A stretch of DNA of 40,337 nt, from positions 1-40,337 of the forward strand of contig SHUM01000030.1 in assembly GCA_009691245.1 (NCBI GenBank). Reading direction: 5' to 3'. Origin of the DNA: Acidobacteriota bacterium. GTDB taxonomy: Bacteria; Acidobacteriota; Terriglobia; 2-12-FULL-54-10. The notes under the pieces were generated by a model that did not search any database, was not told the origin of the DNA, and saw nothing but the letters and a program-made list of their open reading frames with translations. The position numbers were made by a program, and so were the translations under genes. Shown here in pieces: positions 8,981 to 13,497 of this stretch (position 1 is the stretch's first letter; each line of letters opens with the position of its first letter).

Positions 8981-9053
8981 CGAAATTGAGGCATAATGCG
9001 GCGGTAGTCCGATTTCCCCAATCCTACTATCCTTCTTTTCCGTGGGAGTAGTG

Positions 9054-11236
9054 ATGTACAAACACATGCTTCGCGCGGTGGTGGTCCTGCTGGCCTGTGC
9101 CGATGGTTCAGGGCTTGCTGTTGCGCAATCGTCCGTTCCGCAATTCATCCCCGGCAGCACGCTGCCCAGAATGCAACTGACCGGAGAGCACTTCCAGATA
9201 TTTCCAAATGGCACTTACTTCAACGAGATAACCAGCGCACAAACCCTCACGCGTTACGGAATACTCGGCTCGGATCTCGGATACCCGATCACCGTCGGCG
9301 ACCGGACCTACTTCTTGTTTGGCGACACCATCGGCAACTATCTAAACGCTGGCCGCTACACGCAGGCACGGCTGAACGCAGCGGGTTCCAATGATGCTTT
9401 GGGCTACATCAGCAACACGGATCTCCGGCCCTGCCGCTATATCCCCGAAGTGGACCTTCAGATACTGCAGGGCAACAGCCGCCCCACGGTTTCCCAGGGG
9501 GCCTGTCCTTCGCTGCGTTTTTTCGCCAATGCAGGCCGCGCCAGCGATGAACTCCTGTTCAAGCCCATCGTGATCTCCGGCCTGCTTGCCGGGGAATCGC
9601 AGGGGGCTTTCCGCGTGCCGTCGTCGGGGTTCATGTACAACAACCGCATGTATGTGTTCTTCACCAGCAGGATTCGGGATGCCGACGGAGACGGAGTGCC
9701 GGAGGCCTTGCTACAGTCGCTGCTGGCCAAGTCTGATCAGCCCGTCGCGAACTGGACTGATCAGACTCCGCCATCATTCACGCGCCTGTACACGGTCTCC
9801 GCGCACAGCCCCCTGGCCGATCCGGCGAATCCGCCTGCTGAAGCCGGCGAGCCGGGCAAATTAATGTATTCCATACCGATGGTGATGGATTCGGCGGCGC
9901 TGTCCGCGGCCGGATTATTGTCCGGGCTGCCCGCGGAGCTGCGCACCGCGGCCAGCGTCCTGTTCGTATACTCCGCCAGCTACCGGATCACGCGCAGCAA
10001 CGTGTTTCTGGCGGCGGTCGCTCTGGCGGATGTGGAGGCTGGCCCATCGCGCTGGTTCTACTATCGTGGAAACAGCCAATGGTCCAGCAACGAAGTGGAC
10101 GCCGCGCCTTTGTTGGAAGGCACGCCGAATGTCGGCAACTTTTCCGTCAAATGGATCAGCGCGCTGCAGCGCTTTGTGATGCTGCGCACTACGGTGGGCC
10201 AAATTTCCGGGCTAACCGCCACCACTCCCTGGGGGCCATGGAGCCCGCCCGTTACCCTTTACACCATCCGCGACACCTGGAGCCGCAAGCTTTCACACCA
10301 TACTGGAGACCCCATCGTGCGCAGCCTGGTTCCCATTTACGATCGCAACGGCAGCCCCATTGATATCGGAAATGGTGAGGGGGCTTCCGTCTATGGGCCC
10401 TATTTGCTGGACCAGATTACGCAAAATCCTGACGGGACCGTAACGCTCTACTACACGCTATCGTTGTGGAACCCCTATCAGGCGTTCCTGTTCAGCAGTA
10501 CGGTATCGGCCGGCGCGCCGCTGCCGACCGCTTCGACGGTGAATGCGGCGAGCTTCGCGCCCGGCGCGCTTGCCTCCGGCGCCATCGCCTCCTTGTTCGG
10601 CAGCGGACTGGCTCCGAGCACGTCCTCCACTCCCAGCACCACAACTTGCCCTTCACGCTGGCAGGCGTCAGCATCAACGTACAGGATCAGCAGGGCACCA
10701 CTCTTGCGGCTCCTTTGTTTTTCGTTTCCGCGGGCCAGATCAATTTCCTGCTGCCGGAGGGCCTGGCGCCCGGCAGCGCCACGGCCACCGTGCTGCGCGA
10801 TTTCGCGCCCGCGGCCAGCGCGCCGCTGACCATCGCTGCAGTCGCCCCCGCGCTGTTTACGGCGAATGCCGACGGGCGCGGCGTGGCCGCGGCCTACTTT
10901 TCGACAGCCAGCAATCCCACTGTTTTCGCTTTCACATGCGGGGCAGCCGGCGGCACGTGTTTCGCCGCTCCCTTTGATCTTTCCACCGCGCTTGGCGGCG
11001 CCGTGCTGGTTCTCTACGGGACGGGCCTGAAGAACAATGGCGGCCTGAACTCCGTGGTGGTGACCCTCGGCGGCGTGCGCGCGCAGACGCTCTACGCCGG
11101 GCCGCAGAACCAGTATCCCGGCCTGGATCAGATCAACGTGCAGCTGCCGCCGGGGCTAGCCGGTCGCGGCGAACTGGATGTGATCGTCACCGTGAACGGC
11201 GTGCGGGCCAATACCGTGCGCGTCGCGTTCCGCTAG
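9054..11236 (+). pseudogene. Secreted DUF4185 protein with Solibacter-type C-terminal domain, frameshifted
   Basis: Signal peptide (about residues 1-25), then a DUF4185-like five-bladed propeller region of about 480 residues (YFLFGDTIG, MYVFFTSR, VYGPYLLDQI), then a TIGR03437-type domain known from Solibacter. The C-terminal domain starts in the first frame (VNAASFAPGALASG...LFGSGLAPS) and continues in another frame (LPFTLAGVSI... to the stop at 11234-11236). The switch falls between about 10620 and 10646 and equals one missing base. Without it the product would be about 727 residues. The ATG at 9054 has GGGAG five bases upstream; a GTG at 9042 is less likely. It may be a true pseudogene, or an assembly error in an intact gene. 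Function is unknown; an extracellular surface or glycan-related role is possible. Confidence 0.85.
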
Positions 11237-11371
11237 CCGGATGCGACCCCTTGCGGCCGCGTGGAATTGGCAACGCAAACTGCGATCCATCCGCGATTTG
11301 TTTGTGCCACACTTCCACCCCGCCGCCACTTCCGCTAGAATTGCTGATTATCAGAACAGGAGCGTTCAGCT

Positions 11372-11524
11372 ATGGCAATCGATCCGGTCTGCAAGATGGT
11401 GATTGATGAAATCAAGGCAGCAGGCAGCTCGACCTATCAGGGTAAGACCTACTTCTTCTGCGCGCTCGGCTGCAAGAAATCCTTCGAGGTGAATCCGGAG
11501 AAATACCTTGCGCCGAAATCGTAA
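11372..11524 (+). CDS. YHS domain mini-protein
   Basis: A 50-residue protein consisting almost entirely of one YHS domain: DPVCKM at residues 4-9, then YQGKTYFFCALGCKKSFEVN with C30 and C34, ending in PEKYL. Such domains bind transition metals through the cysteines and occur in copper and heavy-metal proteins and as stand-alone small proteins. CAGGAG at 11357-11362, nine bases before the ATG, is a strong ribosome-binding site. It sits alone between the broken DUF4185 gene and the toxin-antitoxin pair. A large open frame on the opposite strand (11366-11854) overlaps it but is not credible against this clear domain. Confidence 0.9.
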   Translation: MAIDPVCKMVIDEIKAAGSSTYQGKTYFFCALGCKKSFEVNPEKYLAPKS

Positions 11525-11558
11525 ACTTCCTGCAAGACCAAGGGCAGGCGTAGAATGA

Positions 11559-11573
11559 ATTGAGTATCTCAAT
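11559..11573 (+). promoter_or_regulatory. Candidate operator of the toxin-antitoxin pair
   Basis: ATTGAG-TAT-CTCAAT is a perfect 6-3-6 inverted repeat ending two bases before the antitoxin ATG. TAGAAT at 11551-11556 could be the -10 element, but I see no convincing -35. Antitoxins of RelE/ParE systems commonly bind such palindromes to repress their own operon; here this is inferred from position. Confidence 0.45.
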
Positions 11574-11575
11574 AG

Positions 11576-11776
11576 ATGGCGACACAACCGATCAGCGGCA
11601 TTCAGTTCGTAACCGACAGCAAAGGCCGCAAGCTGGCGGTGCAGATTGACCTGCGCAAGCACCGTCTGCTCTGGGAAGACCTCTCCGACGGACTGATGGC
11701 CACGGCGCGCCGCAAGGGAAAATCCGTTTCCTGCGCGGATTATCGCGCGGCAAGAATAAAACGCTCCCGTGCCTAA
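11576..11776 (+). CDS. RelB/Phd-like antitoxin of a RelE/ParE pair
   Basis: A 66-residue protein with the pattern of small antitoxins paired with RelE/ParE toxins: a beta-rich start (GIQFVTDSKGRKLAVQIDL, residues 8-26), an amphipathic helix (RLLWEDLSDGLMATARR) and a basic tail with an S-x-x-D-Y helix (SCADYRAARIKR). The toxin frame starts inside its last codons, an eight-base overlap typical of such pairs. The reading frame is intact although the toxin is broken. A perfect palindrome lies just upstream. Exact family is uncertain because these antitoxins diverge strongly; the assignment leans on the toxin next door. Confidence 0.75.
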   Translation: MATQPISGIQFVTDSKGRKLAVQIDLRKHRLLWEDLSDGLMATARRKGKSVSCADYRAARIKRSRA

Positions 11777-12032
11777 ATACAAAGTCTTTCTCAAATCATC
11801 CGCGGCGAAGGAATTGGACGCGTTAAGCGATGCTCTGTTTGCTCGCGTGGACAAGAAGATTCTCGATCTTGCACATCATCCCCGGCCCGTCGGCTGCAAG
11901 CAACTTCGCGGACAACGCGATCTGTAGGGAGTTCGTGCAGGGAATTACCGGGTCATCTACTCAATTGATGATGCCAAATTGCTGATTGAAATCCTGAAGG
12001 TCCGAGACCGGAAGAACGTTTACGAACGTTAG
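11769..12032 (+). pseudogene. RelE/ParE-family toxin with in-frame amber stop
   Basis: Starting at GTG 11769 the frame reads as an 87-residue RelE/ParE toxin: KYKVFLKSSAAKELDAL at the start, HHPRPVGCKQLRGQRDL in the middle and GNYRVIYSIDDAKLLIEIL, then KVRDRKNVYER at the end. Codon 53 (11925-11927) is TAG, exactly where the family usually has an aromatic residue in the L-W-R-[IV]-R segment, and the following Arg position is Gly. Only 52 residues precede the stop, so the catalytic sheet would be lost. Both flanks remain well conserved, which suggests recent inactivation. Suppression of the stop or a sequence error are the alternatives. Confidence 0.85.
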
Positions 12033-12108
12033 CTTCCATCCGTGCTTGATTCTTGTCGTTTGAATTCTGCTTAGGAGTTTGTTTTGCTTTATTTTTCTTC
12101 TTCCTGTT

Positions 12109-13398
12109 CTAATACCGCTCGTTGATCCACTTGGCGGCGTAGTCGAAGAAATTCTTCACGCTGTTCCCGTATTGCCCCGGCGTCGACTCGCACTCCGTGC
12201 AGGGCGTGATGCCGTGCGTCGCGCCATCGATGATGACGTAGTCCTTGTCCTTGCTGGCCGCTGCCTCGTAGTTGATCTCGTTGTCGCGCACGAAGTAATG
12301 TCCGCCCATGCCGAAGATGAGCACGGGCACGGAGATACTTCGCAGCGCGCAGGGCGTTGAGTTATTGCTCGAGCACCAGTCGATGCCGTCCATCGAGTCG
12401 GTCGAGCGAATCGCGTTGGCGCTGAGGAACGACTTGAGCGTCAGAAACAGCGTCCCGCCGTTGAGCGTGAAGTTGGACTTCTTCATATTCAGATTCGGCT
12501 GGCGCACGCTCTCGACAATCTGTGTAACGATAGTCCCGTCGTTCTTGAGCAGCTTCTGCGGCTTCACCGTCGCGTGATGGACGCGCATGTCCATCTCCAT
12601 CAGGCGCGCTCCCACCGCGCGGGGAACGATGAACGGCTCGTCGTCAGTGTAAGTTCTCTTGCCGGCCTTCACCAGTGCCAGCCGCTTCTCCGCCGCCGCG
12701 ATCAGACGATTCATTCGCGCGGCCTGCGCCTTGAAATAGCGCTGCTTGAAATCGTCCGAGTAGTTTGACGAGCCGTTGGGGTTGTAACCATTCTTCGCGC
12801 TGTAGGGATCGAGAGACGGGTCAATCTTTGTGGGATCAGTTTCGTCCATCAGCGAAGCGTTCAGGCTGCGCACGCCGTTCACCGAGTTGCCGGGGTGCGC
12901 ATCGCGGAAGATGACGCCGTCGGCGCGCGGCAGGTTGGCCAGCTTGTCAGTACACTGCATCAGCTTGCCCGGCCCTTGGCAATACGACGGGCCCTTCTCC
13001 GCGACCGCTTGGTAGAAGCTCATCGTGGGTCCGCCACCGCTGCCGCCGTGAAGAATTACTTTGGTGATGCCGGGCTGCTTGCGCAGAAACTCGACCGCGG
13101 ACTTCACGTCGAGCGCAATATCCTCCCACTCGACCGAGGCCTCGTTGTTCTCAAAGCGCGAATTCAGTCCGAGCACCATGATGCCGCGCTTGGGGAACTC
13201 CGTCATAGGCAGGCCGGACATTTGATTGTTGGTGCGATGCGTGACGATCACGGCCACATGCGCCGCCGGGCCGCTATCAGGCGTATAGAGCGCTGCCTTG
13301 GCCAGCCCGGGCAACTGAATGAAGGCAGGATTACTCTGCGCGCGCGCCGCCGTTGCCGACATCACCATCAAGCCTGCCAGCGCTATTCGAAGTATCAT
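12109..13398 (-). CDS. Secreted alpha/beta-hydrolase
   Basis: A 429-residue protein with a signal peptide (cleavage probably after ATAARA, residue 20). The alpha/beta-hydrolase core is visible in VAVIVTHRTNNQ (about 48-59), the nucleophile elbow VILHGGSGGGPT with Ser120, a late strand VPVLIFGMGGHYF where the acid would be expected, and IIDGATHGITPC carrying the likely catalytic His. A roughly 150-residue insertion between core strands, rich in Asn and Lys, probably forms a lid. The ATG at 13398 has GGGAGG upstream and starts the signal peptide; a longer frame to 13464 is unlikely. Substrate unknown; esterase or dienelactone-hydrolase-like activity is plausible. It is monocistronic, followed by 76 bp to the next genes. 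Confidence 0.8.
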   Translation of the reverse strand: MILRIALAGLMVMSATAARAQSNPAFIQLPGLAKAALYTPDSGPAAHVAVIVTHRTNNQMSGLPMTEFPKRGIMVLGLNSRFENNEASVEWEDIALDVKSAVEFLRKQPGITKVILHGGSGGGPTMSFYQAVAEKGPSYCQGPGKLMQCTDKLANLPRADGVIFRDAHPGNSVNGVRSLNASLMDETDPTKIDPSLDPYSAKNGYNPNGSSNYSDDFKQRYFKAQAARMNRLIAAAEKRLALVKAGKRTYTDDEPFIVPRAVGARLMEMDMRVHHATVKPQKLLKNDGTIVTQIVESVRQPNLNMKKSNFTLNGGTLFLTLKSFLSANAIRSTDSMDGIDWCSSNNSTPCALRSISVPVLIFGMGGHYFVRDNEINYEAAASKDKDYVIIDGATHGITPCTECESTPGQYGNSVKNFFDYAAKWINERY

Positions 13399-13462
13399 CT
13401 CGGACCTCCCGCAATATACCAATCGCGGCTCAGTATAGCCGGGGTATAGCGCAAACAAAAAC

Positions 13463-13497
13463 AAAATCCCAAACGGTGGGTGCCGCTTGGGATTTTT
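13463..13497. terminator. Bidirectional Rho-independent terminator
   Basis: AAAATCCCAAaCGG at 13463-13476 pairs with CCGcTTGGGATTTTT at 13483-13497 around a TGGGTG loop, with T-rich runs on both strands. It lies 43 bp beyond the stop codon of the DUF1501 gene on the minus strand, so it should end that operon and insulate the hydrolase gene. Confidence 0.8.

What the first reader, a model, noticed from the sequence alone, without database searches (positions are those of the whole stretch)
11559..12032. Toxin killed by an amber codon at a conserved aromatic position, antitoxin left intact
The RelE/ParE frame is conserved on both sides of TAG at 11925-11927, which replaces the aromatic residue of the L-W-R-x-R segment; the next conserved Arg is also Gly. 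Two changes side by side favour real inactivation over a single read error. The antitoxin frame and a 6-3-6 palindrome at its start remain. Toxin loss with antitoxin kept may leave an anti-addiction gene or an orphan regulator.
Basis: partly seen in the sequence, partly recalled or inferred. Interest (0 to 1): 0.55.

Follow-up and report, generated by a model that had tools for sequence, protein, structure and literature searches.

The report
Dead RelE toxin, antitoxin still open
A bacterium carries a broken copy of a common growth-arresting toxin next to its still readable antidote gene, an ordinary step in the decay of such gene pairs, which in this family appears to start with the toxin.

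Summary
An antitoxin ORF (11576-11776) overlaps a RelE-type toxin frame (11769-12032) cut by TAG at 11925-11927. All 30 intact family toxins compared have Trp there; 29 of 30 have Arg at the next column, where the window has Gly. Lys45 and His80 are also changed. The window toxin departs at 4 of 21 near-invariant columns, against at most 3 in an intact relative, so real decay is likelier than one read error. The stop falls in the second of four predicted strands.

The wider pattern is one-way. Of 49 distinct loci of this antitoxin family, 30 have both genes intact, 17 have a full open antitoxin with a broken or missing toxin, 2 have both damaged, and none has an intact toxin beside a broken antitoxin.

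The anti-addiction reading lacks support: the antitoxin's probable toxin-binding half is the more eroded half, and no plasmid or phage copy was found. Most likely this is an ordinary decaying toxin-antitoxin locus whose antitoxin is a relic, or at most a stand-alone N-terminal module.

The parts
11576..11776 (+). antitoxin ORF, 66 aa, open; distant from Pfam RelB-like PF18506
   Evidence: (16.1 bits against cut-off 27)
11769..11927 (+). N-terminal part of the RelE/ParE-type toxin frame (GTG start overlapping the antitoxin end; 52 codons, then TAG)
   Evidence: first strand and two helices by analogy with the model of the intact relative L058
11925..11927 (+). in-frame TAG at a column that is Trp in 30 of 30 intact family toxins
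11928..12032 (+). remnant of the toxin C-terminal half behind the stop (Gly at the next column; Asp at the His80 column), ending at the frame's own stop
11559..11573 (.). 6-3-6 palindrome ATTGAG-TAT-CTCAAT just before the antitoxin start; not supported as an operator

Best explanation
A chromosomal type II toxin-antitoxin pair of RelE type, in a draft genome related to Acidobacteriota MAGs, is decaying toxin first. Shown: the toxin frame is closed by TAG in its second predicted strand, so the C-terminal 35 residues are not made in the normal way, and the part behind the stop departs at further near-invariant positions. The antitoxin frame is open, but its C-terminal half is unusually diverged. 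Inferred: the C-half binds the toxin; while the toxin is active, loss of the antitoxin is harmful, so lesions fix first in the toxin. Once the toxin is dead, the binding half is released from constraint and the gene drifts. The antitoxin is most likely a relic with no present job.
For: TAG plus three other departures at near-invariant columns: 4 of 21, the most among 31 sequences. The part from the stop on is the most diverged of 31 (1.95 against 0.16-1.41). Among 49 loci: 30 intact pairs, 17 antitoxin-only, 2 both damaged, 0 toxin-only. Of the 33 best toxins in a toxin-seeded search of 399 genomes (cut just below the window's own score), 32 are stop-free; 31 of these 32 have a stop-free family antitoxin beside them (matched by coordinates) and one has a different open antitoxin. 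A second RelE-type toxin of the same genome (C5) also has an in-frame stop with an open antitoxin frame. An antitoxin beside an intact family toxin shares only the C-half with this family (22.4 bits; best of 2000 shuffles of its C-terminal part 8.8), which points to that half as the toxin binder. The window antitoxin has the second largest C-minus-N divergence of 47 (1.58; highest paired 0.94).
Against: No reads were available and no orthologous locus was found in sister genomes, so the time and truth of the lesion are not directly shown. A single-base frameshift in the neighbouring gene near 10.6 kb could mean local sequence error. As a group, orphan antitoxins are not more eroded than paired ones (p 0.43 for the N-half, 0.54 for the C-half, 0.99 for C minus N). 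The window antitoxin's N-half is also above the paired mean (0.96 against 0.55), and one intact toxin, L073, has the same C-minus-N contrast as the window toxin (0.77), so part of the divergence may predate toxin loss. Orphan toxins are common in E. coli (passage of PMC10790755).
Confidence: 0.78

Rival explanations
1. The antitoxin is kept as a stand-alone module (DNA-binding or dimerising N-half) with a regulatory job, and its toxin-binding half is free to drift.
For: Of the columns invariant or nearly invariant in 24 antitoxins, the window keeps all up to L40 and loses S42, E48 and P52; C-minus-N contrast second largest of 47, the largest being another orphan, L108.
Against: The N-half is also more diverged than the paired mean (0.96 against 0.55); palindrome near chance and not shared; 7 of 9 other genomic sites examined lie inside frames; low-confidence model without a fold match; nothing shows that the N-half binds DNA.
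Confidence: 0.13
2. Anti-addiction module: the antitoxin neutralises related toxins brought in by plasmids or phages.
For: The model is in print for chromosomal ccd (passages of PMC2654758), and orphan antitoxins are abundant in Klebsiella and E. coli (passages of PMC7192599 and PMC10790755).
Against: The probable toxin-binding half is the more eroded half; no homologue of a relative's antitoxin (L058) in 72,556 plasmid or 50,697 phage records, and none in viral contigs with the family alignment. Acidobacterial mobile elements are probably thinly covered there (recalled, not tested).
Confidence: 0.07
3. The stop is a sequencing or assembly error and the pair is functional but divergent.
For: The genome is a draft (96 contigs), and a single-base frameshift lies about 1.3 kb away.
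Against: Three more departures at near-invariant columns, one directly beside the stop; 32 of the 33 best toxins of the class survey, largely from draft genomes too, are stop-free. I did not check every gene of the window for lesions.
Confidence: 0.1
4. The stop is read through (suppression or recoding), giving a low level of toxin.
For: Only the preserved frame behind the stop.
Against: No stop at this column in 30 of 30 intact family toxins; no pyrrolysyl-tRNA synthetase over the cut-off in this genome (best 15.9 bits against 178); extra departures behind the stop. Suppressor tRNAs were not searched for.
Confidence: 0.02

Closest known systems
RelE/ParE superfamily type II toxin-antitoxin pairs (PF05016; Thermus RelE 2khe, M. 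tuberculosis RelBE, E. coli RelE 4fxe)
   Same: The family profile finds 11 distinct solved RelE/YoeB-type sequences, best 2khe at 1.5e-14; the model of the intact relative L058 matches 2khe, 9g12, 1wmi, 3g5o and 4fxe; antitoxin frame before the toxin frame, overlapping
   Different: the window toxin is interrupted; its antitoxin scores below the Pfam RelB-like cut-off
Decaying chromosomal TA loci and orphan antitoxins (ccdO157 of E. coli; orphan antitoxins of Klebsiella and E. coli)
   Same: reviews describe decay by deletion and nonsense mutation and inactive toxin mutants; surveys report abundant orphan antitoxins (passages read)
   Different: other families and phyla; here stop, frameshift, remnant and absence are seen side by side in one family

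Membership tests
RelE/ParE superfamily toxin (PF05016) | profile match over the curated cut-off | tested here: met
   38.2 bits against 23 with X at the stop
RelE/ParE superfamily toxin (PF05016) | intact frame with the basic catalytic residues | tested here: not met
   TAG at column 53; Gly at 54, which the alignment sets against K52 of E. coli RelE (that K52 is catalytic is recalled); the window copy is a pseudogene of the family
type II TA locus | small antitoxin gene directly before and overlapping the toxin frame | tested here: met
   11576-11776 and 11769-12032. In 28 of 30 intact pairs the toxin match starts inside the antitoxin frame; the sorting looked only downstream, so the order itself is by construction
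RelB-like antitoxin PF18506 | profile match over the curated cut-off | tested here: not met
   16.1 bits against 27 for the window; 15 of 24 alignment members, the window included, match at E up to 0.01, best 5.6e-6
orphan antitoxin | open antitoxin frame without an intact adjacent toxin | tested here: met
anti-addiction module | antitoxin neutralises a toxin of a mobile element | not testable with these tools
   indirect search for mobile homologues found none
autoregulated TA operon | operator bound by the antitoxin | tested here: inconclusive
   palindrome near chance and not shared by relatives; no sigma-70-like promoter match in 11240-12110; binding itself untested

The most novel reading that the evidence does not exclude
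In this Terriglobia antitoxin family the toxin repeatedly dies first, and in old orphans (the window, L108) the antitoxin is being pared down to its N-terminal module, which is kept as a stand-alone regulator while the toxin-binding half erodes.
Probability: 0.12. Interest if true: 0.5.

Novelty: new member of a known kind. Interest (0 to 1): 0.27.

Why it matters
It is one clear case of toxin-first decay in a family where 17 antitoxin-only loci stand against 0 toxin-only loci among 49. Stop, frameshift, remnant and absence can be seen side by side, so the prediction that addiction sets the order of gene loss can be counted. The antitoxin at G306:C60, which shares only the C-half, suggests which half binds the toxin.

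Tried and rejected
Sister genomes: of 6 same-genus or same-family genomes, 1 has a DNA match to 11240-12110, and it covers the YHS gene only (G002). The same-genus homologue (G001, 67%) of the 12109-13464 gene shows no TA and no YHS match within the 1,500 bases fetched on each side. The age of the lesion cannot be bracketed.

Operator: ATTGAGNNNCTCAAT with up to 1 mismatch has 13 genome sites against 2 for the reversed control. Of 9 of the 12 other sites examined, 7 lie inside frames of 90 or more codons stop to stop. Rejected as a regulon.

Orphan antitoxins as a group eroding in the C-half: not seen. Pyrrolysine read-through: no synthetase over the cut-off. Defence-system models: no hit for 4 proteins. 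Antitoxin fold search: model pLDDT 65, no match at E up to 0.001.

Rows dropped: 58 distinct antitoxin-like loci reached 40 bits; the 49 of 80 bits or more were counted. The 9 below are L109, L033, L110, L111, L118, L112, L015, L119 and L017; L033 and L015 have intact toxins, the other 7 have a toxin piece or none, and L111 also has a stop in the antitoxin. Loci with the same antitoxin DNA were collapsed, L094 into L095 among them. The '2 both damaged' are L014 (stop in the antitoxin, toxin broken) and L106 (antitoxin lacks the first 8 model positions, toxin broken). The sorting into intact and broken was done by eye from the output. For 8 of the 17 antitoxin-only loci no toxin piece passed the threshold; in 3 of these (L086, L025, L108) about 15 residues are visible by eye. 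Below the 33 best toxins, the list (capped) shows five more matches with a stop: G338:C294, G000:C5, G143:C384, G028:C64 and G100:C23.

Full report
What is there. The window is contig 30 of a 3.43 Mb draft of 96 contigs. Of 7 named records with a related antitoxin, 6 are Acidobacteriota/Terriglobia MAGs and 1 a Cytophagales MAG. Between a YHS-domain gene (11372-11524) and a gene on the minus strand (12109-13464; no Pfam hit) lies an antitoxin ORF of 66 codons (11576-11776), which overlaps a second frame (11769-12032). That frame matches Pfam ParE_toxin at 38.2 bits when the TAG at 11925-11927 is read as X; the part behind the stop alone reaches 23.8 bits against a cut-off of 23.

The lesion. 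Against 30 intact family toxins the stop sits at a column with W in 30 of 30. The next column is R in 29 of 30 (C in one) and Gly in the window; column 80 is H in 30 of 30 and Asp in the window; column 45 is Gln. The window departs at 4 of 21 near-invariant columns, the most of 31 sequences (next 3 of 22, L095), and its part from column 53 on is the most diverged (1.95 against 0.16-1.41). The C-minus-N contrast (0.77) is the highest but ties with the intact L073 (all). The column after the stop aligns with K52 of E. coli RelE; that K52 is catalytic is recalled. In the model of the intact relative L058 (pLDDT 82) the stop column lies in the second of four strands, residues 52-57. That model matches solved RelE structures.

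Error or decay. A lone read error would not bring the other departures. Of the 33 best toxins in 399 genomes of the class (cut just below the window's own score, a cut chosen afterwards) only the window's has a stop; five weaker listed matches have one too. Against this, the gene at 9042-11236 carries a single-base frameshift near 10.6 kb, so local sequence error cannot be ruled out. A second RelE-type toxin in the same genome (C5) has a late TAA behind an open antitoxin frame. Thus 2 of the 5 PF05016 matches over the cut-off in this genome carry stops.

Family pattern. Loci were gathered with the antitoxin from 101 genomes, 399 class genomes that overlap with these and one collection scan, with more regions fetched, and sorted. 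Of 49 distinct loci of 80 bits or more, 30 have both genes intact, and 17 have a full open antitoxin but a toxin with a stop, frameshift, truncation or nothing. Two have both damaged and none has an intact toxin with a broken antitoxin. The gathering was seeded on antitoxins, so the toxin-seeded search is the needed check: its 32 stop-free toxins have 31 stop-free family antitoxins beside them (matched by coordinates) and one open antitoxin with another N-half (that it looks like RHH is my reading). The lesions differ in kind (stop, frameshift, internal deletion, replaced tail), which points to several independent events (inference). Four of them (L115, L061, L022 and L109, the last not among the 49) break at columns 58-59, and I have no explanation for that. 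Relatedness of the loci was not corrected for.

The antitoxin. The antitoxin at G306:C60 shares only the C-half with this family (model positions 27-56, 22.4 bits; best of 2000 shuffles of its C-terminal part 8.8) and stands beside an intact family toxin. The C-half is therefore probably the toxin-binding part (inference). In the window this half is strongly diverged (2.54; paired mean 0.70), the N-half less so (0.96; paired mean 0.55). The contrast is the second largest of 47, the largest being another orphan. As a group, orphans do not differ from paired antitoxins (p 0.43, 0.54, 0.99). 6 of 17 orphans are 93% or more identical to a paired antitoxin, so some losses look recent. The window antitoxin fits a long-orphaned relic; a retained N-half is possible but unproven.

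Palindrome. It is real but not conserved: none of the other 48 upstream regions holds it within 2 mismatches. Inverted repeats with arms of 6 or more occur in 8 of 49 regions against 4.5 expected from mononucleotide shuffles, and of 9 other near-matching sites examined 7 lie inside frames. TTGACA occurs in the 75 bases upstream of 9 of 49 antitoxins, in 8 of them followed by a stretch like TTAGAGT or CTAGAGT (by eye). The window has no such pair and no sigma-70-like match was found there.

Literature. Decay of chromosomal TA systems by deletion and nonsense mutation, inactive toxin mutants and anti-addiction are described in reviews (passages of PMC2654758 and PMC7167474). Orphan antitoxins are abundant in Klebsiella and E. 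coli (passages of PMC7192599 and PMC10790755). The E. coli paper also reports many orphan toxins, and the Klebsiella paper found, near about half of its orphans, a frame that might be a new toxin; both run against a strict one-way rule. The case is a new member of a known kind. For this family in print I made one search, 'Acidobacteria, RelE, toxin-antitoxin, antitoxin' (12 of 4,887 papers listed, listing only).

I corrected the claims on lesion positions, on how recent the losses are, on gene order, and on the shared upstream motif. Confidence in the main reading went from 0.80 to 0.78 and in the error rival from 0.08 to 0.10, because I had not checked every window gene for lesions; the regulator rival went from 0.15 to 0.13, because the N-half is also above the paired mean.

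Noticed in passing
window 9042-11236 (+), near 10630: One gene (DUF4185, then a TIG/IPT-type C-terminal part) appears split over two frames by a single-base shift; real or sequence error not settled.
   Followed up: partly
G000:C5:8334-8591 (L064, L114): Second RelE-type toxin of the same genome with an in-frame TAA before the last conserved motif; the antitoxin frame before it is open.
   Followed up: partly
L113 (G306:C60), about 1080-1550: Intact toxin of this family paired with an antitoxin whose N-half is another sequence (RHH-like by my reading) while the C-half is homologous.
   Followed up: yes
L115, L061, L022, L109 (toxin columns 58-59): Four damaged toxins break at nearly the same place, just after the RxGD stretch; in L022 and L061 the end of the toxin reappears after an internal deletion. 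A deletion-prone spot is possible.
   Followed up: no
upstream of L010, L077, L082, L026, L007, L098, L097, L103 antitoxins: Recurrent TTGACA followed at promoter-like distance by a TTAGAGT/CTAGAGT-like stretch: a probable shared promoter, not seen in the window.
   Followed up: partly
G005:C20 (L014) and G392:C74 (L106): Loci where the antitoxin too is damaged (stop, or missing N-terminus) beside a broken toxin: perhaps the next stage of decay.
   Followed up: partly
G000, 13 sites: ATTGAGNNNCTCAAT with up to 1 mismatch occurs 13 times against 2 for the reversed control; 7 of 9 other sites examined are inside frames.
   Followed up: partly
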